Shown piece by piece: positions 363-10,992 of a stretch of 64,000 bases of DNA. The DNA is from Candidatus Accumulibacter conexus (GTDB taxonomy: Bacteria > Pseudomonadota > Gammaproteobacteria > Burkholderiales > Rhodocyclaceae): positions 1 through 64,000 of the forward strand of contig JAGFNJ010000015.1 of the NCBI GenBank assembly GCA_017592775.1, read 5' to 3'. The position numbers were made by a program, and so were the translations under genes. The notes beneath the pieces were generated by a model. The model searched no databases and was not told the DNA's origin. It saw only the letters and a list, made by a program, of their open reading frames with translations. Within the stretch, counting starts at the first letter, position 1, and every line of letters starts with the position of its first letter.

Positions 363-2609
363 CTACAGCGGCGCCACCCGCTCGCAGATCCAGCGGCCGA
401 AAACCGGCACCAGCAACTCACCGTTGTCGCCCATGAGCTGCCGCCGTTGCAGGATTCGCCGCATTGCATGGTCGGCCGGCAGTGGGTGCCCCTGCGCCGC
501 GGCGGCGACGACCGCCTGCGCCAGTGGCGGCAGGTCGCCCCAGACGTTCCGAAAATAGTACGCCGCCTGCTCGAGCACGGCTTCCTCGACCGCCTGTAGG
601 TCGGCGGCGCTTGCCGTGCGCCGCTGCTCGTCGTTCAGCTGGTCAACCAGCAGCGAACCGTAGAGCTGCGTCAGGAACGGCTGACCGCCGGTCCGCGCGA
701 CAACCGAGGCGGCGAGCGCCTTGGGAATCGTCCCGAGCGGGAACTCGGGGATCGGTTGCTGCAGAAGGTCGATCGCCGTCTGCCGATCGAGGTAGCCGAC
801 GCGGATTTCGCGCAGATTGATGAAGTGGTCGTCCCACAGCGCGTCGAGTTCGTCGAAGGGCGCCGCACCGGCGACCAGCAGGCGCACACGCCGCCGGTGC
901 TGGATCGTCGCCCGCAACAGGCCCATGAACTGCAACAGCTCGTTGCCGGTACTCGGGAACAGGCTCGGCAGGCGCTCGAATTCGTCAATGCAAACGAGAA
1001 AGCGCGGCGCGTCGGCCATCTCTTCGAGAGCCTGCAGCCAGGCGCGCAGAGCCTCGATCGGCGCACCGGGCAGCAGCGGCGGCAGCCGCAGCCGGCGGTC
1101 GGCAAACGCCTGTTCGCTCGCCTGCCGGACGAGCGCGGCGTAGAACGCTGCCGGCGTCGTTGCCGGGTTGTCTTGCAGGTCGAAGAGGACGATCTGCGTG
1201 TCCGGCAGCAGCAAGCGGAACATGTTCAGTAGCGACGACTTGCCGCAGCGCCGGGGGCCGATCAGCGCCAGCGCGCCGCCATGCTGCCGCTCGCCGAGCA
1301 GCCCCTCGACCTGACGGACGACGTCCTCGCGACCGCGGAACACCTGCCGGCCCCAGTGCAGCGTGCCGGACAGTGGCTGGCCGGTGACGAACGGGTTTGG
1401 CAACAGCGTCGCTGCCGCCTGCGCGCTCTGCGCCTGCAAGTCGGTAACCGCGCGCCGGTACGCCGCCAGCGGACCGGCGACGAAGCGCGCCAGCGGCTCG
1501 CGCGACTGCAGGCGCAGGTTGTCGAGGGCAGCAAGTTGCCGTTCGACATCGCGCAGATGCTGCTGCGCGCGATGCGGCTGATGGCTAGCCCCGGCCGCAG
1601 CGAGGAAACGCGCCGCTTCGGCGAAGGCGCGCAACAGATCGCTGCCCGGATCGCGACCGGGTAGCCATTGCCCCTGCAGCACCAGGGCGTCAGCGAAGCG
1701 CCCGGAGGCGATGAGCTCAGCCAGTTCGCGCGCCTGCAACTCGGCAAGCGCCGCGTGCCCGACGCGCCGCTGTCCGGGAATCAGCGCGCAGACGTCAAGC
1801 ACTCGGCGGACGAGTTCCGGGTCTTGTGGCGCCGCGGCGACGATGTCGCGCGCCAGGAACGGCAACGGCAGGCAGGAGAGTTCGTGGAACAGCACCGGCG
1901 ACCAGTGCAGCGCGCGCGCCGGCGCGCGGCCGGCGAACAGGTGCAACTGCGCTTGCAGCAGGCACTCGAACGGGTAGAGTGGCAGGCGCAGGAAGCCTAG
2001 GACGACCCCTACGCCGAACCCCGCGTCCGCTGGGTCGATGGAAGCCACACTGACAGCTAGCGCGACCGCTACCCCGACCGCTACCCCAAATACCACGTCC
2101 CCCGCCGCACCACGCCCTCCACTGAACGCTACTCCGCACGCAACACCAACAGCTACAGCCAGTACTGCGTCGACCGCTGCTCCGAAAGCTACGCTGAGCA
2201 GTAAGCAACCCGTTACGCCGAACGTTACCCCGCCCGCTACGCTCAACGATACGCCGCGCAGTACGCCGAAGCCTACGCTCAACCCCACAGCTGCCGTCAC
2301 GCCGGCCGCTAAGCCGACCGCGAACAGCGCGATCGGGAGATCGAGCGCCAAGATGGCGTTTGCCCGTGCCAGGCCAGCCAATACCATTAGTGCGACGACG
2401 GTCACCACAACTAGCAGAGCCGCCAGCCGCCGGCCGTACGCGCGATACGACGGGTGAAGTTGCTTCCGCCGTCGCCACCATCGCCAGCCACTGATGTCGG
2501 GCTCGTCGATGCCCGCAGCGAGCAGGCGTCGGTTCAGGCTCAGCGGCTGCATGAAGAACATCCAGGCGAAGCGCGCGTAGCCCGGCAGCGGCGCTTCGCC
2601 GGCGTTCAT
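363..2609 (-). CDS. Membrane STAND/AAA NTPase, second gene of a TIR-linked pair
   Basis: Predicted membrane-anchored P-loop NTPase of STAND/AAA type, function unknown. From the start chosen here (748 aa), a cytosolic N-terminal stretch is followed by a hydrophobic helix at about 63-82 and a Gly/Val/Ala-rich hydrophobic repeat at about 89-207. A helical linker leads to an NTPase domain with Walker A GPRRCGKSS near residue 450 and Walker B FLVCIDEFERL near 540. The C-terminus resembles the winged-helix end of such ATPases. The ATG at 2609 gives an ATGA overlap with the stop of the upstream TIR gene, so translation is probably coupled; an ATG at 2627 is the alternative. The TIR gene carries the same kind of NTPase. 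A sensor/effector or immunity role is inferred from architecture only. Confidence 0.75.
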   Translation of the reverse strand: MNAGEAPLPGYARFAWMFFMQPLSLNRRLLAAGIDEPDISGWRWWRRRKQLHPSYRAYGRRLAALLVVVTVVALMVLAGLARANAILALDLPIALFAVGLAAGVTAAVGLSVGFGVLRGVSLSVAGGVTFGVTGCLLLSVAFGAAVDAVLAVAVGVACGVAFSGGRGAAGDVVFGVAVGVAVALAVSVASIDPADAGFGVGVVLGFLRLPLYPFECLLQAQLHLFAGRAPARALHWSPVLFHELSCLPLPFLARDIVAAAPQDPELVRRVLDVCALIPGQRRVGHAALAELQARELAELIASGRFADALVLQGQWLPGRDPGSDLLRAFAEAARFLAAAGASHQPHRAQQHLRDVERQLAALDNLRLQSREPLARFVAGPLAAYRRAVTDLQAQSAQAAATLLPNPFVTGQPLSGTLHWGRQVFRGREDVVRQVEGLLGERQHGGALALIGPRRCGKSSLLNMFRLLLPDTQIVLFDLQDNPATTPAAFYAALVRQASEQAFADRRLRLPPLLPGAPIEALRAWLQALEEMADAPRFLVCIDEFERLPSLFPSTGNELLQFMGLLRATIQHRRRVRLLVAGAAPFDELDALWDDHFINLREIRVGYLDRQTAIDLLQQPIPEFPLGTIPKALAASVVARTGGQPFLTQLYGSLLVDQLNDEQRRTASAADLQAVEEAVLEQAAYYFRNVWGDLPPLAQAVVAAAAQGHPLPADHAMRRILQRRQLMGDNGELLVPVFGRWICERVAPL
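1989..2345 (-). repeat. Gly/Val-rich hydrophobic repeat coding segment
   Basis: This part of the membrane STAND gene encodes short units of the form GVA.GVA / FGVAVGVA over about 120 residues. At the DNA level it is a degenerate series of gctac.ccg-like units. The antisense strand therefore shows a spurious Thr/Pro-rich open frame (2038-2457). The composition fits packed membrane helices. Confidence 0.6.
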
Positions 2610-4003
2610 AGGCGCAGCAGCCGCCATTCTTCGAGCACGGCCCCGAACGGCTGGCCCTCGTCGAGCAGTCCGCGCCGCTGCAAGGCGCCGACGAGTGGTG
2701 CTGGCGCGCCGTGGCCAGCGGAGCAGAGCGCTTCGCGCTCACGCGCCGGCAAGGCGCGTGACCATTCGTCGAGGCGCTGGAAAGCGTTGTCTCGGAAAGC
2801 CTCGATCGCCGCCTCGTCGCTCTCACCGCCGCAGCGCGCCTGCCACAGGTAGTGCGCCAGCAGGCTGAGGTAGAACGGGTGGCGGCCAGCGAAGCGGCGC
2901 AGCGTTGCCGCATCATCGCCGCCGAGCACGCCGGCACCTCTTGCGAGCAGCGCGCTGACGCCGGTCCAGTCAAGCAGGCCGACGCGCTGCACTTCGAGCC
3001 GGTTGAGCAACGGCGAAGTCCTGCCGTCGTCGCGCGCGATTTCGCCAATCTCGTGCCGCGTCGCGAACAGCAGACAGACGCGGCCGAGCATGCCACGCAG
3101 ACGCTCGAAGAAGCGGTACGGCAGCCGCGCCAGAACCGCCTCGGCCTCGTCGATAATCAGCAGCGGTGGCAGCCCACCCGACGACGACGCCCACGCCGAC
3201 AGCTCGTCGGCCGCGACGTCGGCCGCCGCTTCGCGCGCAGCACCACTGCACGGCTTGGCGGTCAGTGCCTTTACGAGCGCCCCGCACGAAGCCGCTTCCG
3301 GCCCCTGCCCGTCGGCGATGGCGACGATCCGCCCGGCCTGCCGGGCGCGCTCTGCCCAGGTGAGCAGCAACGACGACTTGCCGGTACGCGCGTCGCCGAG
3401 CAGCGAGACGCTGCCATTGCGGTCGAGGGCGTGGTGCAACCGGCGCAGCAGCGGCTCGCGACCGCAGAAACGCGGCGGCAGCGCCGGCGTCCACGGGTCG
3501 AATGGGTTGGCGGCGGGCATCGCGTGGGGTTCGCCATGCGCCTCGCCGCAGCCGCCACCGCCGTCGTGGCCAATCAGAGGCGGCTTGTCGCCGCGTACTC
3601 CCCAGACGATCCGGCGCACTTCCGCGTCGCGCCAGCCCTGCCGCAGATCGACCCTGGTGCGATTGTGCAGAAAAAGCGGCAGTTCAGGCTCCGCGGGTGC
3701 GCCCGGCAACAGCACCGGAATCACCGCCTTCTTCGCCTGCACTGCGAGTCGGAGTGCCGCCTGCACTTCCTCTTCCTGCCACGGTCCAGAGCCACTTGCG
3801 CCGACCAGGACGACGATGCTGCGCGCCGTTTGCAGCGCTTCCTCGAGCAGTGGCTGCCAGTTCTGGCCCGGCTGCAGTTCGTGGACGTCGAGCCAGACGT
3901 TCAGCCGATGCGTCTCCAGCGTCACCTTCAGCGCTTGCGCGTCGGCTTGGTCCGCGCGGTGGTAGCTCAGGAAGACGTCGAAACTGGCGGGCGCATTGGG
4001 CAT
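2606..4003 (-). CDS. TIR domain-STAND NTPase
   Basis: This 465-residue protein begins with a TIR domain (about 6-135), recognised by FDVFLSYHRAD at 8-18 and WLDVHELQPGQNW at 37-49. W75 and E79 form a WxxxE-like pair at the position expected for the NAD-cleaving glutamate of bacterial TIR enzymes. A Gly-rich linker follows, then an NTPase domain with Walker A GDARTGKS at 203-210 and Walker B LLIIDE at 281-286, and a helical C-terminus. Bacterial TIR domains commonly act as NADases or nucleotide-signal makers in antiphage defence; TIR plus STAND resembles prokaryotic NLR-like proteins. No leucine-rich, WD40 or TPR sensor domain is present, so sensing may lie in the partner at 363-2609. The catalytic role is inferred, not shown. 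Confidence 0.8.
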   Translation of the reverse strand: MPNAPASFDVFLSYHRADQADAQALKVTLETHRLNVWLDVHELQPGQNWQPLLEEALQTARSIVVLVGASGSGPWQEEEVQAALRLAVQAKKAVIPVLLPGAPAEPELPLFLHNRTRVDLRQGWRDAEVRRIVWGVRGDKPPLIGHDGGGGCGEAHGEPHAMPAANPFDPWTPALPPRFCGREPLLRRLHHALDRNGSVSLLGDARTGKSSLLLTWAERARQAGRIVAIADGQGPEAASCGALVKALTAKPCSGAAREAAADVAADELSAWASSSGGLPPLLIIDEAEAVLARLPYRFFERLRGMLGRVCLLFATRHEIGEIARDDGRTSPLLNRLEVQRVGLLDWTGVSALLARGAGVLGGDDAATLRRFAGRHPFYLSLLAHYLWQARCGGESDEAAIEAFRDNAFQRLDEWSRALPAREREALCSAGHGAPAPLVGALQRRGLLDEGQPFGAVLEEWRLLRL

Positions 4004-4313
4004 GGTGGGAGGGTATCATGGCTGGGCATTTCGGCTGCGCGATGGCGTTGGGCAATCCATCGCCGGCCGCGCAACGGCCCGATTGGCGATGCGCCGCTCA
4101 CCAATACCCCGGCAGCGCGCAGTATGTGCCGTCGCTCCCTCGACCGTCAAGCCGACAGGCAGGCTGCCGATCAACCTGCAGGGTCCGTCATTCAGTCCGC
4201 TTTGCAGAACCGGTTGTTTCGGTCTCGCAGATCGGGTCAGTCCAGACCGGGGCGCCGACTCGGTTGCACGACGGTCGGCGCATGGCACCGGCAATGCCGA
4301 CGCCGATTGCTGG
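4004..4313. other. Intergenic region upstream of the TIR-STAND gene
   Basis: This is the 5' flank of the minus-strand TIR gene. It has only frames typical of GC-rich antisense noise and no protein family was recognised. It must hold the promoter of the TIR/STAND pair, but no clear -35/-10 pair was found. Confidence 0.3.
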
Positions 4314-4529
4314 ATGCACACGGCCGAAGCCACGCGCGAGGTCGCAGCCTTCCAGCCGAAGAGCAGGTCGAGCACCCTCCTCGACCGCGTGGCCAATGGC
4401 CATCAAGCCGTCATCAACCGCCGCGGCAAAGCCGTCAGGCAGCTGCTGCCTCCAGAACCCTACCTGGCTAGGCCACGCCCATGCGATGATACGGCAGCAG
4501 AGGAAATCGGCAAGGGTTCGATGCGATGA
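4314..4529 (+). CDS. Orphan Phd/YefM-like antitoxin, possibly a remnant
   Basis: A 71-residue frame whose central part matches the Phd/YefM antitoxin pattern: EVAAFQPKSRSSTLLDRVAN, then QAVINRRGKAVRQLLPPEPY. Family members typically read as VGAFEAKTHLSxLLDxVxxGE followed by ITRxGKPVAxLVP. Its stop overlaps the start of yffB (ATGA at 4526-4529). No RelE/ParE/Doc/PIN toxin reading frame lies beside it, and no good ribosome site precedes the ATG. It may therefore be an orphan, a solitary regulator, or the residue of a decayed toxin-antitoxin module. The adjoining 5' sequence stays open but does not look coding. Confidence 0.45.
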   Translation: MHTAEATREVAAFQPKSRSSTLLDRVANGHQAVINRRGKAVRQLLPPEPYLARPRPCDDTAAEEIGKGSMR

Positions 4530-4870
4530 TCACCGTCTTTGGCATCCGGAATTGCGACACCATGAGCAAGGCCTTCGCTTGGCTCGAGGCCAATGGCGTC
4601 GCCTACGAGTTCTGCGATTACCGGCAGCCGGGGGTGGTGGCCGCACGGCTGCCGGAGTGGAACCGCTGTGCCGGCTGGCAGGAATTGCTCAACACGCGCG
4701 GACTGACCTGGCGACGTCTGTCGCACGACGAGCGCGCCGGGATCGACGAGGCGCGGGCACTGCAGTTGATGGTGGCGCATCCGACGCTGATCCGCCGCCC
4801 GCTCGTCGCCGTGGACGGCCACCTGCTGCTGGGATTCAGCCCCGAAGGCTACGCCCGGCTGCTCGACTGA
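4526..4870 (+). CDS. yffB: ArsC/Spx-family reductase-like protein YffB
   Basis: A 114-residue member of the ArsC/Spx/YffB thioredoxin-fold family. The N-terminal VFGIRNCDTMSKA motif carries the single family cysteine, and RRPLVAVDGHLLLGFSPE is the conserved C-terminal segment. The length is normal for YffB (about 115). The family resembles glutaredoxin-coupled arsenate reductases, but YffB proteins probably reduce another thiol substrate. The start overlaps the stop of the antitoxin-like frame upstream. Confidence 0.85.
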   Translation: MITVFGIRNCDTMSKAFAWLEANGVAYEFCDYRQPGVVAARLPEWNRCAGWQELLNTRGLTWRRLSHDERAGIDEARALQLMVAHPTLIRRPLVAVDGHLLLGFSPEGYARLLD

Positions 4871-5065
4871 AGAACTGCTGGCCACGAGGGCGCGTGCGCA
4901 GGATGACGGTAAAGCGATCGGCAGACGCCGACCCTGAGGGATGAGGAGCGCTGCCGTCGTTGCCGGCAGGGTCGGCGACGATGGTGCCAACAAGGTCTGC
5001 GGACCAGAGTCAACCGCTGTGGCAGGATGGCACCCCCCGCCGCAGCCGGAAGAAGGGAAGAGCTC

Positions 5066-6334
5066 ATGATCACCGTCGGTGTGGCGGGGGCGGGCAGCAT
5101 CGGTGCCGGCCTGATCCGCCTTCTGCACACCTCGCCGGCTGCCCGCAACCTGCGGCTGAAGACCGTCCTCGTCCGTGACGCTGCCAAGCAGCGCCCGGAA
5201 CTCCCCGCCGGCACCCCGCTGACGGTCTGCCCGGCTGAGCTGACCGACGATCCGCAGATCGATGTCGTCGTCGAGCTGCTGGGTGGCGTCGACGAGCCAT
5301 TTGGCATCGTCAGTCGGGCGCTGTCGCAGGGGAAGGCCGTCGTCACGGCGAACAAGAACCTGCTCGCCGAACGCGGCCCCGAGATCTTTGCCCTGGCGGC
5401 GGAGCGCCGCTTGCCACTGGGCTACGAAGCCAGCGTCTGCGCCGGCATGCCGATCATCCGGACGCTGCAGGAAGCCCTGCGCGTCGACCGGATCACGGCC
5501 CTCGAGGGGATCGTCAATGGGACGAGCAACTACCTGCTGACGCGGATGAGTGAGGAACGGGCATCGTACGCACAATGCCTGGCCGACGCGCAGCGGCTCG
5601 GCCTTGCCGAGCCCGACCCCGCCTACGACGTTTCGGGCCAGGATGCGGCCTGCAAAGCGGGCATCCTGGCGACCCTCGCCTTTGGCGCCTACGTCGACTG
5701 CCACCGGATCCCCACTTCGGGCATCGGCAGCATCGCCCTCGAAGACGTCCATCAGGCCGAGGCGATGGGCTACCGCATCAAGCTCGTCGCTGCCCTCGGC
5801 CGCCCGGCCAGTGGCCGCGTCGCTGCCGAGGTGGCGGCGGTTCTGCTGCCACGGCATCATCCTCTGGCCTCGATCCGCATGGAGTGCAATGCGGTCCGCA
5901 TCGAGAGCGAAGGCCTCGGGGAAACGCTTCTCGCCGGCAGGGGAGCCGGTCCGGAACCGACGTCCGTGAGCCTGCTGGCCGACCTGCTGGACATCGCCGA
6001 GGGCCGGGCCCGGATTCCGACGGCCGAGCATCCGTTCATCGCCAGTGTCGCCGATTTCGAGGACCGGCAGGCTGTCGCTTCCCGCTACTATCTGCGGCTG
6101 GCCGTCGCCGACCGGCCGGGCACGCTGGCGCAGGTGGCCGGTTTCTTCGCCAGCCAGGGCATCAGCCTCGCATCGGTGCTGCAGCCAGAGGTTCCGGACC
6201 TCGCCGGCAGCTCGCTCGTGCCGCTGATCCTGACCACCCACACCACCGACCGCCGGCGCCTCGACTTGGTGCTGGCAACCCTTGCCGCCGCCGGCTGGGG
6301 GCGCAGCGTCGTCCTGCGCATCCGGGAGCACTGA
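5066..6334 (+). CDS. hom: Homoserine dehydrogenase
   Basis: Catalyses NAD(P)H-dependent reduction of aspartate semialdehyde to homoserine, the branch point towards threonine and methionine. The 422-residue product has an N-terminal Rossmann motif VGVAGAGSIGAG, the family region GIVNGTSNYLLTRM, and a catalytic/substrate block including YDVSGQDAACKAGILA. A C-terminal ACT domain (about 340-420, RPGTLAQVAGFFASQGISLA) fits allosteric threonine inhibition. The ATG at 5066, just after a purine-rich GAAGGGAAGAG stretch, was preferred over the upstream in-frame start at 5027 because the Rossmann strand begins immediately. The GAGSIGAG loop differs slightly from the more common GxGTVG. Confidence 0.95.
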   Translation: MITVGVAGAGSIGAGLIRLLHTSPAARNLRLKTVLVRDAAKQRPELPAGTPLTVCPAELTDDPQIDVVVELLGGVDEPFGIVSRALSQGKAVVTANKNLLAERGPEIFALAAERRLPLGYEASVCAGMPIIRTLQEALRVDRITALEGIVNGTSNYLLTRMSEERASYAQCLADAQRLGLAEPDPAYDVSGQDAACKAGILATLAFGAYVDCHRIPTSGIGSIALEDVHQAEAMGYRIKLVAALGRPASGRVAAEVAAVLLPRHHPLASIRMECNAVRIESEGLGETLLAGRGAGPEPTSVSLLADLLDIAEGRARIPTAEHPFIASVADFEDRQAVASRYYLRLAVADRPGTLAQVAGFFASQGISLASVLQPEVPDLAGSSLVPLILTTHTTDRRRLDLVLATLAAAGWGRSVVLRIREH

Positions 6335-6406
6335 GCTGCCGGCAGTGTGCACCCCGTTCAGCGCTGCGACCGGGCCCCGCCGGGCGTGGCAGCGGAGCGG
6401 GCGGAG

Positions 6407-7258
6407 ATGAACGTCACCACCTTCGAGGCGCTCGCCTGTCCGCTGGACGGAACCCCCCTGCGGCGCGAAGGCTCGACCTGGCGTTGCCCTGCCGGGCACA
6501 GTTACGATATCGCGCGGCAGGGACATGTCCATCTGCTGCCCGTGCAGCAGAAGCGCTCGCGCGGCCCCGGCGACAGCCGGGAGATGGTGGCTGCCCGTCG
6601 GCGTTTCCTGAATTCCGGCGCTTACGGCCCCATCGCCGCCGCGGTGAGCAGGGCAGTTCTGGCGCAGGTGCCGGCAGCGACGGCCGCCAGTTGCCTCGAT
6701 GCCGGCTGTGGTGAGGGCTACTACCTGCGGCAGCTGGCGGCTGCGGGCAGCGATGGGCCGGACTTGGCGCTCATCGGCATCGACATCTCGCGCTGGGCTG
6801 TGGCAGCGGCGGCAGGACAGGATCGGCGGCCCAGCTGGGTGGTGGCCAGCAACGCCAACCTGCCCGTGCAGTCGAGAACCCTCGACTGCGTTATCTGCCT
6901 CTTCGGTTTTCCGGTCCATGCCGAGTTTGCACGCGTACTCAAGCCGGGCGGCCTGCTGCTGCAGGCCGATGCCGGCGACGACCATCTGCGCGAGCTGCGC
7001 GAAATCATCTATCCCAGCCTCAAGCCGCGACACAGTGCCCCTGCGCCGGCGGTCGAGGGATTTGTCGCCCTGCCCGGCGAGCGCGTCCGCTACGCTCTGG
7101 ATCTGCGCGACAGCGAATCGATCGCCGACCTGCTGGCGATGACGCCGCATCTGTACCGGGCCAGCGCCACGCGCCGCGCGCAGGTCGGCAGGCTGACGGC
7201 GCTGTCGGTGACCGTCGATGTCTCCCTGACGCAGTTGCGGCGGGGCGCCTCGGGTTGA
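6407..7258 (+). CDS. rlmA: 23S rRNA (guanine-N1)-methyltransferase RlmA
   Basis: SAM-dependent methyltransferase predicted to methylate N1 of G745 (E. coli numbering) in 23S rRNA. The 283-residue protein has the RlmA N-terminal metal site region, then HVHLLPVQQKRSRGPGDS, which is nearly identical to the E. coli segment. The SAM loop is LDAGCGEGYYLRQL. The zinc-site ligands appear as C11, D14, C27 and H31: the second cysteine of the usual CPxC is replaced by Asp. The start at 6407 puts the metal site at the expected distance from the N-terminus; the longer frame from 6347 adds an Arg/Pro-rich tail with no family support. Confidence 0.88.
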   Translation: MNVTTFEALACPLDGTPLRREGSTWRCPAGHSYDIARQGHVHLLPVQQKRSRGPGDSREMVAARRRFLNSGAYGPIAAAVSRAVLAQVPAATAASCLDAGCGEGYYLRQLAAAGSDGPDLALIGIDISRWAVAAAAGQDRRPSWVVASNANLPVQSRTLDCVICLFGFPVHAEFARVLKPGGLLLQADAGDDHLRELREIIYPSLKPRHSAPAPAVEGFVALPGERVRYALDLRDSESIADLLAMTPHLYRASATRRAQVGRLTALSVTVDVSLTQLRRGASG

Positions 7259-7459
7259 GCGCGACCGCCATCTCCCGACCGGCTGGCGACGATTTCATGA
7301 CGATCTCCCCGGTCGCGGATGGCAATCGGCACGAAACGTGAAATAGTTCCTGGTGCTTCGGCAACCGGCGACGACAGACTCTCGTCGTGGGCAATGGGGT
7401 GCGTGCTGGGGTCGTGCGGCAGCCCCGTGGAACTGGTTCGAGCAGGGGGTGCGAGAGCG

Positions 7460-8317
7460 ATGATACGGGTTTGGGGCAAGCAGATGTTCGCCAGCGTGGC
7501 ATTGCGTCTGGTCGTGGCGATTGCCCTCCCGGGAGCAGTGGCACAAGCAGAGAGCTACATCGAGGCGCCACGGGTGACGGCGGCACTGCAGCAGGGGCAC
7601 GCTGCCGAGTTCGGCGTCGGCATCAGGCGCAACCCCCTGCTGGCAGTGGCCCTCTATTGTGATGCGGGAACGATGGGCAGCCCGGAAGGCTTCTTCCGTG
7701 TCGGCCGCGTACTCGCCAGCGCGCCCCGCCCGCTGCGCAACCCGGCGCTGGCCAACGCCTACCTGGCACTGGCTGCCCGCCTCGGACACCACGAGGCGCT
7801 CAGGCTCTACGATTCACGCGTGGCCAGTGCGGTCATCGGGGACGAGTGCGGTGTGTACGGCAGCGGCACCGACGGGACGCGTTTCGACCTCGATGGTTAC
7901 CTGGCCGGACAGTCCGTGGCGAAGCAGAGGATCGCCCTCCTCATCCGCCGCGCAGCGCGCCAGTATCAGGTCGATCCGCGCCTCGCACTGGCGATCGCCA
8001 TCGCCGAATCGAATCTCGATGCCGCTGCCGTGTCGCCACGCAATGCGCAGGGCGTGATGCAACTGATCCCGGCAACCCAGGAGCGATTTGGCGTCACCCG
8101 TCCGTTCGACCCCGAGCACAACGTCAGGGGCGCACTCGCCTATTTGCGCTGGTTGGACCGGCGTTTCGCGGGCAACTGGCGACTGATTGCCGCCGCCTAC
8201 AACGCGGGTGAGGGAGCGGTCGATCGTTACAGCGGCGTGCCGCCCTTTGCCGAGACGCAGCAGTACGTGCGCCGTGTCCTGCATTTCTCGGGCTTCGCCA
8301 CCAAGGAGAGGGGCTGA
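7460..8317 (+). CDS. Lytic transglycosylase, SLT domain
   Basis: Periplasmic peptidoglycan lyase that makes 1,6-anhydromuropeptides. The 285-residue product starts with a signal-peptide-like segment ending near VAQAES. The N-terminal half is helical and Sel1-like. The C-terminal SLT domain (about 165-280) has the catalytic glutamate in ALAIAIAESNLDA, the NAQGVMQLIPAT motif and the AAYNAGEGAV motif. The ATG at 7460 was chosen because it precedes the signal peptide directly; the open frame extends upstream to 7319 without family similarity. The 200 bp separating it from rlmA hold no recognised element. Confidence 0.85.
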   Translation: MIRVWGKQMFASVALRLVVAIALPGAVAQAESYIEAPRVTAALQQGHAAEFGVGIRRNPLLAVALYCDAGTMGSPEGFFRVGRVLASAPRPLRNPALANAYLALAARLGHHEALRLYDSRVASAVIGDECGVYGSGTDGTRFDLDGYLAGQSVAKQRIALLIRRAARQYQVDPRLALAIAIAESNLDAAAVSPRNAQGVMQLIPATQERFGVTRPFDPEHNVRGALAYLRWLDRRFAGNWRLIAAAYNAGEGAVDRYSGVPPFAETQQYVRRVLHFSGFATKERG

Positions 8318-8668
8318 GGGGCGCCCGGCGCGCCGTTCCGCCACCTTGCTCGCCCCGGGGATGCAGCGTGCGGCTGGCCCCCGTGCAAACGACCCTGGCC
8401 CGGTCGCTGCCGAGTGCGGGCGGCGACGCGAGCTGGCTGCCGGGTCCATGCGTCCGACGCCGGCAGGTTCTGCCGCCAACCCGATAGTGCTCAGAGCAAC
8501 CCCCGGGTGCGCCTCCCGTCGGCATAAAGCATTTTTCTTGCGCTCCATTGCCTCTGTTTGTTGTACTCTTTGCGCCGTCTTCGCCCACCGGTGCATGATC
8601 GAAAGACATGTGCGCCGCGAGGATGGTGCCGCGTCGCCCGCGTCCGATCTTCATCAACAGGAGGTATC
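8318..8668 (+). other. Intergenic region, probable promoter of the amino-acid ABC operon
   Basis: No gene seen. The stretch at about 8524-8575 is locally AT-rich and contains a weak sigma70-like pair (TTGCGC and TGTACT, about 18 bp apart). A strong Shine-Dalgarno AGGAGG at 8659-8664 serves the next gene. Confidence 0.35.
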
Positions 8669-9442
8669 ATGCGTCTTCTAGCCAGGTTGTTGAGTGCCGT
8701 CATTCCTCTTTCGCTGCTGCTCTGCGGTCCGGCGGCGGCGCGTGAGTGGGATGCGATCAAACAGTCGGGAACCATCATCGTTGCCACCGAAGGGGGTTTC
8801 CAGCCGTTCAACTACTATGATGGGCCGAAGCTCACCGGTTTCGAGGTGGAGCTTGCCGAAGCGATCGCGAAGAAGCTCGGGCTCAAGCTCGAATGGCGCG
8901 TGGTTCCGTTCGACGGACAGATTGCCGCACTGAAGCAGGATCGTTTCGACTTTGCCATCGCTTCGCATGGCTATACGGCAGAGCGGGCGAAGTCGGTCGA
9001 TTTCGCCAATCCGCACTACTGTACCGGCGGTCAGATCGCCGCACACAAGGACGGTCCGCTGACCGTTGCGGCACTGGATGGCAAGACCGTCGGCGTCCAG
9101 CTCGCAACCAGCTACGCCGACGCGGCGAAAAAGGTCAAGGGCATCAAGACGATCAAGACCTACAAGGGCGACCCCGAAGCCTTTGCGGCGCTGCGTGCGA
9201 AGAAGGTCGATGCCTGGATCTCCGACAAGTTCACCGTCAAGGCGACGCTCGACAAGAACGCCGATGCCGGCATCACTGCCGGCGAGCTGGTGTTCGTCGA
9301 GCGCGTGTCGATGATCCTGCGCAAGAACAACAAGGCGCTTGCGGAGCAGCTCAATCAGGGGCTGGCCGAGGTGATGAAGGATGGCACCTACAAGGCACTG
9401 TCGGAAAAGTACTTCAAGGAAGACGTTTCCTGCCGTTCCTGA
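8669..9442 (+). CDS. Amino-acid ABC transporter, periplasmic binding protein
   Basis: A 257-residue solute-binding protein of the polar amino-acid family (PBPb fold). It has a cleavable signal peptide ending near GPAAA|RE, then the family motifs GTIIVATEGGFQPFNYYD and LTGFEVELAEAIAKKLG, and a C-terminal GLAEVMKDGTYKALSEKYF segment. The ATG at 8669 follows a near-perfect AGGAGG; the open frame upstream to 8558 is noncoding. Permease and ATPase genes follow at 21 and 11 bp, making a three-gene importer operon. The substrate cannot be read from the sequence. Confidence 0.92.
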   Translation: MRLLARLLSAVIPLSLLLCGPAAAREWDAIKQSGTIIVATEGGFQPFNYYDGPKLTGFEVELAEAIAKKLGLKLEWRVVPFDGQIAALKQDRFDFAIASHGYTAERAKSVDFANPHYCTGGQIAAHKDGPLTVAALDGKTVGVQLATSYADAAKKVKGIKTIKTYKGDPEAFAALRAKKVDAWISDKFTVKATLDKNADAGITAGELVFVERVSMILRKNNKALAEQLNQGLAEVMKDGTYKALSEKYFKEDVSCRS

Positions 9443-9463
9443 GCCTGAGCTGAGTCGCGCGCG

Positions 9464-10222
9464 ATGAACTGGACCAGGCAGCACCCGGGATGGGCGATGT
9501 TCGCCGCCATGATCGGGCTGCTTCTCTTCCTCTGGGGGATGGCGCTGCCGCTCGCGGCAGCGCCATCCCCCATCGGGCCAGCGGCCGAGCAGTTTGCCGA
9601 CGGGGCGAGAATCACCGTCGGGCTGACCTTGATCGCCGGCAGCGCCGGCGTCCTGATCGGCGTCCTCGCCGGCCTCGGCAAGCTGTCGCGCTTCTGGCCA
9701 CTGCGCTGGCTCTGCGACAGCTACGTCTGGCTGATTCGTGGCACCCCCCTGCTGCTGCAGATTCTGTTCGTCTGGCTGGCCTTGCCGACGATCATGCCCG
9801 AAGGAGTGGAACTGTCCGATTTCGCCTGCGCGGCGATCGCCCTGTCGCTCAATGTCGGTGCCTACAACACCGAGTGCGTGCGGGCGGGGATCCTTGCCGT
9901 GCCGCACGGTCAGGTCGAGGCCGCGCGCGCCCTCGGACTGACGCCGCTGCAGACGTTCATGGACGTGATCCTGCCGCAGAGCATGCGCGTGGCGCTGCCG
10001 GCACTGGCCAACAACCTGGCCTCCCTGGTCAAGGATTCGTCTCTCGCCTACGCCATCAGCGTCGTTGAACTGACCATGGTCGGTTACCGGGTGCAGGCCG
10101 AGAGCTATCAGCCCATCCCGGTGTTCGTGACCATTGCCGCCATCTACCTGATCCTGACCACGGCCTTCACGACGCTGACGGCCGCGCTCGAGGCGCAACT
10201 CGATGTCGGCCAGAAGCGCTAG
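9464..10222 (+). CDS. Amino-acid ABC transporter permease
   Basis: A 252-residue inner-membrane subunit of the HisM/GlnP type. It has an N-terminal membrane helix, the [19 protein letters not shown] segment that opens the transporter core, and the EAA loop [20 protein letters not shown], which docks the ATPase. Four further hydrophobic segments follow. A single permease gene suggests a homodimeric channel. The short extra periplasmic loop after the first helix is slightly longer than in GlnP. Confidence 0.92.
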
Positions 10223-10233
10223 CGGGAGTCGCC

Positions 10234-10992
10234 ATGAACTCTGAAGCCGTTCCCCGACCGATCATCGAGGCGCGCGCGATCGGCAAGCGCTTTGGCGCCT
10301 TCCATGCGCTCAGGGACGTCTCGGCGACGTTCCACGAGGGGCAGGTCACCGCCATCGTCGGACCTTCGGGATCCGGCAAATCGACCTTCCTGCGCACCCT
10401 GAACCGCCTCGAAGCGCACGATTCGGGCGAGATCGTCATCGACGGCATCGTCCTCAGCGACGACATCAAGAACCTGAACGCCATCCGCCGCGAGGTGGGG
10501 ATGGTCTTCCAGAGCTTCAACCTGTTCTCGCATCTCACCATTCTGCGCAACCTGACGCTGGCGCCGATGCGCGTGCGCAGGATGGCGAGGGCCGCTGCCG
10601 AAGAGAAGGCGATGAACCTGCTCGAGCGGGTGGGGCTGAAGACCCAGGCCAGCAAATATCCCGTACAACTGTCCGGCGGCCAGCAGCAGCGGGTGGCGAT
10701 CGCCCGCGCGCTGGCGATGGACCCGAAGGTGCTGCTGTTCGATGAGCCCACTTCGGCGCTGGACCCGGAAATGGTCAACGAGGTGCTGGCGGTGATGCGC
10801 GAACTGGCCTACAGCGGCATCACCATGCTCGTGGTGACGCATGAGATGGGTTTCGCGCGCGAGGTCGCCGATCGCGTCATCTTCTTCGACGAAGGAGTGA
10901 TTCTTGAAGACACCACGCCGGAGAGCTTCTTTTCGAATCCCGGGCATGAGCGGGCCAAGGCCTTCCTGTCACAGGTCCGGCACGGTTTCTGA
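10234..10992 (+). CDS. Amino-acid ABC transporter ATP-binding protein
   Basis: A 252-residue GlnQ/HisP-like ATPase. It shows Walker A GPSGSGKS, the Q-loop in [18 protein letters not shown], the signature LSGGQQQR, Walker [12 protein letters not shown] and the switch His in VVTHEMGF. It is the last gene of the importer operon, 11 bp behind the permease. The following 115 bp, convergent with mtfA, hold only weak GC-rich inverted repeats. Confidence 0.95.

What the first reader, a model, noticed from the sequence alone, without database searches (positions are those of the whole stretch)
363..4003. TIR-STAND plus membrane-STAND two-gene module
Two overlapping minus-strand genes both encode P-loop STAND/AAA NTPases: one has an N-terminal TIR domain with a WxxxE-like pair, the other a long membrane region. 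The ATGA overlap implies fixed stoichiometry. Neither has a classical repeat sensor domain. This could be a split NLR-like immune system in which the membrane NTPase senses or executes and the TIR protein depletes NAD or makes a signal.
Basis: partly seen in the sequence, partly recalled or inferred. Interest (0 to 1): 0.75.

Follow-up and report, generated by a model that had tools for sequence, protein, structure and literature searches.

The report
TIR enzyme paired with membrane ATPase
Two overlapping genes in a wastewater bacterium encode a matched pair of immune-type switch proteins, one carrying an interchangeable enzyme and the other sitting in the membrane through a fast-changing repeat, which looks like a two-part bacterial immune receptor whose function is still untested here.

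Summary
In detail: window 2606-4003(-) encodes a TIR-STAND protein (WxxxE, E79) and 363-2627(-) a membrane STAND; frames overlap by 22 bp, or ATGA with an inner start. The host is Candidatus Accumulibacter. Of 23 strong membrane-STAND loci, 16 have a co-directional STAND gene directly upstream, 6 do not, 1 was not examined. In 15 pairs compared, gene 1 carries TIR, SEFIR, trypsin, a weak DUF4062/TIR-like part, a possible HTH, or nothing recognised; gene 2 keeps P-loop GxRRxGK[ST] (15/15), gene 1 loses its P-loop in 3/15. Distances of the two STANDs correlate (Mantel r 0.90). The membrane stretch has glycine about every fourth residue, comes from a 12-bp minisatellite in several relatives, and turns over fast (39% identity where the STAND keeps 94%). 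TPR-S genes lie beside some relatives; none was found on the examined side of the window's pair, whose neighbours are housekeeping; the other side is a contig end. Best reading: a membrane-anchored, two-part NLR-like conflict system with swappable effector. The nearest published kind is the nSTAND2 two-gene operon, whose model neither window protein passes. Defence, interaction and NAD cleavage are inferred, not shown.

The parts
2606..4003 (-). Gene 1: TIR-STAND protein, 465 aa, ending soon after the STAND part
3608..3976 (-). TIR domain (residues 10-132)
   Evidence: Pfam TIR_2 83.7 bits, cut-off 28; RPP1 and SARM1 TIR fold matches
3767..3781 (-). WQEEE (W75-E79), the WxxxE motif with the putative catalytic glutamate E79
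   Evidence: aligned with the WxxxE stretch of AbTIR and other bacterial TIRs; that this glutamate is catalytic in those enzymes is recalled
3374..3397 (-). Walker A of gene 1, GDARTGKS (residues 203-210)
3140..3163 (-). Walker B of gene 1, LLIIDEAE (residues 281-288)
2606..2627 (-). Frame overlap: TGA of gene 1 (2606-2608) with ATG of gene 2 at 2607-2609 (ATGA) or at 2625-2627 (22 bp)
363..2627 (-). Gene 2: membrane-STAND protein, 754 aa from the longest frame
1995..2336 (-). Glycine-rich membrane stretch (about residues 98-211) with remnants of a 12-bp tandem repeat
   Evidence: hydropathy and G-G spacing; 12-bp units at 2052-2087 and 2211-2256; longer arrays in relatives
1407..1856 (-). All-helical domain between membrane stretch and STAND (about residues 258-407), candidate sensor or linker
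   Evidence: AlphaFold2 model; no Pfam family there at E<=1
678..1346 (-). STAND NTPase of gene 2 (Pfam nSTAND1 match, residues 428-650)
1236..1259 (-). Walker A of gene 2, GPRRCGKS (GxRRxGK[ST], residues 457-464)

Best explanation
A membrane-anchored two-part STAND conflict system that works like a split NLR. Gene 2 is a membrane-inserted STAND ATPase which, on a membrane-linked cue of invasion (sensed by the repeat-built membrane domain and/or the helical domain), binds ATP and oligomerises. Gene 1 has a related STAND domain but no recognised sensor; it is recruited into the same assembly and brings its N-terminal effector. Here that effector is a TIR domain which, once clustered, would cleave or cyclise NAD+ through E79 and stop the infected cell. 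Shown: domains, gene order and overlap, co-variation of the two STANDs, effector exchange, P-loop kept in gene 2 but lost in some gene 1 proteins, fast turnover of the membrane region. Inferred: interaction, sensing by gene 2, NADase activity, defence role.
For: Domains. A co-directional STAND gene directly upstream in 16 of 23 strong loci (and those named in the report); of 15 pairs measured, frames overlap by 4-53 bp in 14 and are 32 bp apart in 1, with starts as I chose them. Effector exchange on the same side: TIR; SEFIR (31.1 and 27.7 bits, cut-off 23); trypsin in a second module of the same genome (60.5 bits, cut-off 27.6). Mantel r 0.897 (n=15, p<=5e-5), and 0.763 without four close relatives (n=11, p 2.5e-4), with mirrored subclades. 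P-loop kept in gene 2 15/15, in gene 1 12/15. Patchy: full-length in 3 of 28 congeneric genomes, decayed in G005, G007 and G001. Membrane region 39% identical between two Accumulibacter copies whose STANDs are 94% identical.
Against: No function was tested. The window copy lies beside housekeeping genes. No relative in the plasmid or phage collections and none confirmed in viral contigs, so no sign of carriage on such elements. Six strong loci lack gene 1: two decayed remnants (G005, G007) and four apparently standalone genes (L118-L121); below the limit L126 lacks it too. Five of 15 paired gene 1 proteins have no recognised effector, L123 has only HTH matches below cut-off and L124 none in Pfam. 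With 19 other STANDs added, 9 of 12 gene 1 STANDs group (91/83), trypsin and HTH-labelled ones are unresolved, and the gene 2 group has support 35/2; long branches were flagged in both trees. Models are modest (mean pLDDT 73 and 61), the membrane region unresolved.
Confidence: 0.5

Rival explanations
1. Roles reversed: the effector-bearing STAND senses or signals and the membrane-STAND is the executioner, its glycine-zipper helices assembling into a pore when the STANDs oligomerise or bind a TIR product.
For: Glycine about every fourth residue over roughly 100 hydrophobic residues; Foldseek's first-ranked match for the model is the NRC4 resistosome, although its TM-scores are about 0.16 and many other top matches are ORC/Cdc6 ATPases.
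Against: Enzyme effectors ride on gene 1 in several lineages, which would be redundant with a pore; L057 has only 5 glycines in residues 61-260 though paired; the fastest-changing part of gene 2 in the L007/L008 comparison is the membrane region, more usual for a sensor (inference).
Confidence: 0.22
2. Three-component signalling: the TIR makes an NAD-derived signal read by a neighbouring TPR-S protein, the STAND pair being only the trigger.
For: In the genus 4 of 9 strong membrane-STAND loci have a TPR-S gene within 3 kb, expected 0.03 from the TPR-S counts of those genomes; a deletion remnant of that gene lies beside the L007 pair; a patatin-TPR-S gene lies 95 bp upstream of the SEFIR-STAND gene of L009.
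Against: The four loci are about two independent lineages (G027/G005 and G009/G007) and the 3-kb limit was set after seeing them, so the binomial 1e-7 overstates the case; two of the four (G005, G007) hold only remnants of gene 2. No TPR-S gene or convincing remnant on the examined side of the window pair, and the genome's only TPR-S match is on another contig. The gene is deleted beside the intact L007 pair.
Confidence: 0.15
3. A regulatory or developmental STAND pair with no role against phages, as in MalT-type signalling.
For: Housekeeping neighbours in the window; HTH matches below cut-off at the N terminus of L123 gene 1 (14.6 and 14.0 bits); four apparently standalone gene 2 proteins (L118-L121).
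Against: TIR, SEFIR and trypsin effectors, patchy presence and repeated decay are usual for conflict systems (general knowledge).
Confidence: 0.11
4. Chance neighbourhood of two unrelated P-loop genes.
For: Only that 6 of 23 strong loci are unpaired.
Against: Same order in three phyla with correlated distances.
Confidence: 0.01

Closest known systems
nSTAND2 two-gene operon (Kaur et al. 2021, eLife, PMC8195603; section 15 read, other passages seen)
   Same: Two adjacent genes each with a STAND module; a hetero-ring is proposed there; one STAND eroded and fused to variable effectors. Here too the STAND that erodes is gene 1 (L037, L122, L125; L038 by eye), and one relative's gene 1 (L055) passes the nSTAND2 model.
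   Different: Effectors there are most commonly GT4 or HEPN; here TIR, SEFIR, trypsin. The section read mentions no membrane partner. P0001 has no nSTAND2 match at E<=1; P0002 scores 11.7 bits against a cut-off of 24. That operon is called mobile; no mobile element was found here.
Plant TIR-NLRs (RPP1 type)
   Same: TIR followed by a STAND; RPP1 is the best fold match of gene 1.
   Different: No LRR found; 465 aa; partner gene with a second, membrane STAND.
Avs and other bacterial STAND defence proteins
   Same: Effector-STAND order; Avs4 among the fold matches (8dgf, E 5.3e-5).
   Different: No repeat sensor after the STAND; Avs proteins have no membrane-STAND partner (recalled).
bSEFIR (PADLOC model)
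   Same: SEFIR domain at the N terminus of the L009 relative, 58.7 bits.
   Different: Embedded in the paired-STAND module; the window carries TIR instead.
Thoeris
   Same: TIR protein as presumed NAD enzyme.
   Different: No ThsA-like gene among the neighbours named; ThsB_TIR 16.8 bits, cut-off 21.2.

Membership tests
TIR domain proteins | TIR fold with WxxxE glutamate | tested here: met
TIR domain proteins | NAD+ cleavage | not testable with these tools
   needs an assay of wild type and E79A
STAND NTPases | Walker A and B with STAND/AAA family match | tested here: met
   both proteins
nSTAND2 two-gene operon | both genes adjacent and both STAND | tested here: met
nSTAND2 two-gene operon | STAND passes the Pfam nSTAND2 model (PF20702, cut-off 24) | tested here: not met
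   P0001 no match at E<=1, P0002 11.7 bits; of 21 relatives' module proteins scanned, 1 passes, L055 gene 1 with 28.6 (L007 and L008 proteins not scanned)
nSTAND2 two-gene operon | effector-bearing STAND has eroded NTP motifs | tested here: not met
   window gene 1 keeps Walker A and B; gene 1 P-loop lost in 3 of 15 pairs
nSTAND2 two-gene operon | GT4 or HEPN effector most commonly | tested here: not met
   TIR in the window; SEFIR, trypsin, weak or no effector in relatives
nSTAND2 two-gene operon | conserved arginine finger in both STANDs | not tested
   stated in the paper; not looked for here
Avs | large repeat sensor after the STAND (recalled) | tested here: not met
   gene 1 ends at residue 465, no repeat family at E<=1
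Thoeris | ThsB model and ThsA partner | tested here: not met
   ThsB_TIR below cut-off; five neighbours named are housekeeping

The most novel reading that the evidence does not exclude
A general class of membrane-anchored paired-STAND immune systems: a minisatellite-built, hypervariable membrane-STAND sensor whose ATPase is always kept works with a co-evolving STAND carrier on which effectors (TIR, SEFIR, trypsin, perhaps DUF4062-like) are exchanged, with an optional TPR-S third component. The 12-bp repeat lets the membrane sensor expand and drift in frame while the ATPase stays fixed, a bacterial analogue of sensor/executor NLR pairs.
Probability: 0.33. Interest if true: 0.78.

Novelty: new variant of a known kind. 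Interest (0 to 1): 0.6.

Why it matters
If true, bacteria have a genetically split NLR in which sensing at the membrane and the killing enzyme are on separate, co-evolving ATPases, with the enzyme exchangeable. It gives small, clonable pairs with different effectors on one chassis, so the question of how paired STANDs hand over activation becomes testable. It also points to in-frame minisatellite turnover as a way to diversify a membrane sensor.

Tried and rejected
Rejected: carriage by known plasmids or phages (no match at E<=1e-5, 160 candidate stretches in viral contigs, none confirmed). Rejected: filing as Thoeris, Avs or nSTAND2 (membership test). NCBIfam and PADLOC gave only partial matches to the window pair, the NCBIfam ones far below their cut-offs. 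Considered and not kept: that the clean 100/99 split of gene 1 from gene 2 STANDs proves a single origin of gene 1; with only two groups such a split says one thing for both. With 19 other STANDs (26 found in the loci searched, duplicates removed; the three eroded gene 1 rows left out) only 9 of 12 gene 1 STANDs group, and the gene 2 group has support 35/2. Considered: an adjacent TPR-S gene in the window; no convincing remnant in 4004-4525 or 1-362 (best tblastn E 0.12). Limits: the large searches scored only 2-3 candidates per genome, so their absences are weak. The solved-structure search of the membrane-STAND gave three weak matches, best E 0.0032 to a transporter. Papers: 10 searches; I saw no title or abstract opening that describes this pair, but the lists were capped (25 of 113, 15 of 188, 10 of 2,976 and 15 of 499), most subscription journals are not held, and PMC7685563 was not held.
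Full report
What is there. Gene 1 (2606-4003, minus) encodes 465 aa: TIR (Pfam TIR_2, 83.7 bits, cut-off 28) followed by a STAND NTPase (nSTAND1 34.2, AAA_16 34.6, both over cut-off). W75-E79 is WQEEE and aligns with the WxxxE of AbTIR and other bacterial TIRs; that this glutamate is catalytic there is recalled. Walker A is GDARTGKS, Walker B LLIIDEAE. Gene 2 (363-2627, minus) encodes 754 aa with a hydrophobic stretch at about 62-224, an all-helical stretch at about 258-407 and a C-terminal STAND with Walker A GPRRCGKS and Walker B LVCIDEFE. The overlap is ATGA only with the inner start; the longest frame overlaps by 22 bp. G+C of the pair is 0.695 against a mean of 0.649 (sd 0.016, maximum 0.690) for other stretches of equal length sampled in the window.

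Host and own genome. The close relatives are named Candidatus Accumulibacter records (contiguus 60% and vicinus 63% identity over gene 2). The window starts at the first base of contig C10, so nothing is known beyond gene 2. On the other side lie ArsC, homoserine dehydrogenase, RlmA, a lytic transglycosylase and a solute-binding protein: not a defence island. The same genome holds a second module on C47 (L058): a trypsin-like protease (Trypsin_2 60.5 bits, cut-off 27.6) fused to AAA_16 (32.9, cut-off 32.6), then a membrane-STAND that can start at an overlapping TTG.

Pairing. In the genus, full-length TIR-STAND and full-length membrane-STAND occur in the same 3 of 28 genomes; gene 1 matches in 20 further genomes do not reach beyond residue 232. 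Of 395 family genomes 23 had a match to gene 2; apart from G000, G027, G006, G005 (part) and G018 (part), the best E of the other 18 was 1.7e-5 or weaker. Beyond the family, matches came from 4 further genomes of 398 in the phylum, 5 further of 340 in the class, 1 further of 343 in the L009 phylum and 3 further of 357 in the L010 phylum; these searches used different E limits and scored only 2-3 candidates per genome. Taking loci with E<=1e-50 gives 23: nine in the genus, L009, L010, three and nine. Sixteen have a co-directional STAND gene directly upstream: three TIR orthologues, G009 and G018 (TIR with eroded STAND; G018 gene 2 ends with a stop 20 bp from the contig end), L058, the decayed G001, L009, L010, L055-L057, L122-L125. 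Six do not (G005 and G007 remnants, L118-L121); a badly eroded STAND could have been missed there. One (G1525:C71) was not fetched. Below that limit L127 is paired and L126 is not; further weaker matches were not classified.

Effector exchange. Fifteen pairs were compared (G018/L038 and the decayed L099 were left out). N-terminal part of gene 1: TIR in window, L037 (Pfam), L007 and L008 (by alignment); SEFIR in L009 (Planctomycetota, 31.1 bits) and L010 (Verrucomicrobia, 27.7; cut-off 23); trypsin in L058; in L127 TIR_2 22.0 and DUF4062 17.4, both below cut-off, and PADLOC PDC-S60 46.7; in L123 HTH 14.6 and 14.0, below cut-off, with L124 labelled HTH only by likeness to it; nothing recognised in L055, L056, L057, L122, L125. 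Frames overlap by 4-53 bp in 14 of 15, with a 32-bp gap in L123; starts are the longest frame or, in L007, L008, L037 and L058, the start I judged likely, so the figures depend on that choice. Gene 2 keeps GxRRxGK[ST] in 15 of 15 and in the four standalone genes; gene 1 keeps a P-loop in 12 of 15 (lost in L037, L122, L125). So the membrane STAND looks like the obligate ATPase and gene 1 like a carrier (inference).

Co-evolution. Pairwise distances of gene 1 and gene 2 STANDs correlate (Mantel r 0.897, n=15, p<=5e-5; r 0.763, n=11, p 2.5e-4 after leaving out L007, L008, L056, L057), and subclades mirror each other: Accumulibacter TIR with SEFIR pairs; L055-L057; L122 with L125; L123 with L124. 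Shared species history contributes to such a correlation, and long branches were flagged. As control I added 19 other STANDs: nine gene 1 STANDs (TIR, SEFIR, DUF4062-like and effectorless) group at 91/83; the trypsin and HTH-labelled ones are unresolved; the three eroded ones were left out; the gene 2 group needs one change but has support 35/2.

Membrane domain. In residues 61-260 of nine gene 2 proteins, glycine-glycine spacing 4 is the commonest in six (window, L008, L009, L010, L055, L056), 16 against 17 at spacing 8 in L037, 7 against 9 at spacing 6 in L007, and L057 has only 5 glycines. A 12-bp minisatellite underlies it: 19.4 copies in L008, 27.7 in L010, 25.3 in L038, 20.6 in L122 and 8.8 in L056, more degenerate in the window, L007, L009, L055, L058 and L125. 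Units read GVAx, GIAx or GLAx (by eye), which suggests repeated expansion (inference). L007 and L008 are 94% identical in the STAND (325/344), 77% in the helical part (153/199), 60% in the N-terminal part (52/87) and 39% in the repeat (37/94, with 17 gapped columns); their gene 1 proteins are 90% identical.

Third component. TPR-S genes (PF20308) number 0-4 per genome and occur in 24 of 28 genomes. Four of nine strong membrane-STAND loci in the genus have one within 3 kb, expected 0.03; these are about two independent lineages and the limit was set afterwards, so the call's binomial 1e-7 overstates it. L007 keeps two remnants of the gene; G005 and G007 keep the gene but only pieces of gene 2. 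In L009 a patatin-TPR-S gene precedes the SEFIR-STAND. The window shows none on its examined side.

Structure. The TIR-STAND model (mean pLDDT 73, pTM 0.53) matches plant TIR-NLR RPP1 best (E 5.3e-9, but query-normalised TM 0.34-0.39) and SARM1 TIR domains (target-normalised TM up to 0.78). The membrane-STAND model (pLDDT 61, pTM 0.39; residues 76-219 below 50) matches NRC4 and ORC/Cdc6 proteins with low TM. No complex was modelled.

Literature. Closest is the nSTAND2 two-gene operon of Kaur et al. 2021 (PMC8195603; section 15 read, passages). Passages were also seen of PMC7159879, PMC9503650 and PMC10907252. The window proteins do not pass the nSTAND2 model, while L055 gene 1 does, so the families touch. 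In the capped listings of ten searches I saw no title or abstract opening describing this pair.

Verdict. A real, recurrent module with correlated STAND partners and exchangeable effectors; best read as a split NLR-like conflict system at the membrane. Confidence 0.5 in the stated mechanism, since nothing was tested at the bench.

Noticed in passing
L058 (G000:C47:8000-22000), 6249-10315, minus: Second module in the same genome: trypsin-like protease-STAND followed by a membrane-STAND; a decayed copy with a shortened protease part is in L099 (G001).
   Followed up: yes
L008 5237-7204 (-), L037 9417-10790, L098 3595-4968 (-), L039 6599-8569: TPR-S genes next to intact or decayed copies of the module; in L007 the gene is reduced to two remnants.
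   Followed up: partly
L009 4435-7392: Patatin-like phospholipase with a TPR-S domain (64.3 and 56.0 bits) 95 bp upstream of the SEFIR-STAND gene.
   Followed up: partly
L008 9259-9491, L010 7732-8063, L038 823-1126, L122 within 3630-5870: 12-bp minisatellites encoding GVAx/GIAx/GLAx membrane repeats, apparently expanded more than once.
   Followed up: partly
L008 11188-13548 and 13478-14545: Downstream of the vicinus pair: a TIR protein (TIR_2 39.5 bits) and an ORF that by eye resembles a MoxR-type ATPase.
   Followed up: no
L100 (G011:C1:134000-146000), 4174-8338, minus: Another pair of overlapping ORFs with STAND matches (858 and 537 aa) in Accumulibacter, only weakly related to this family.
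   Followed up: no
L056 3859-6115: Two tandem effectorless STAND genes (the first judged by eye) precede one membrane-STAND.
   Followed up: no
window 363-4003: G+C of the pair (0.695) exceeds every other stretch of equal length sampled in the window (maximum 0.690).
   Followed up: no
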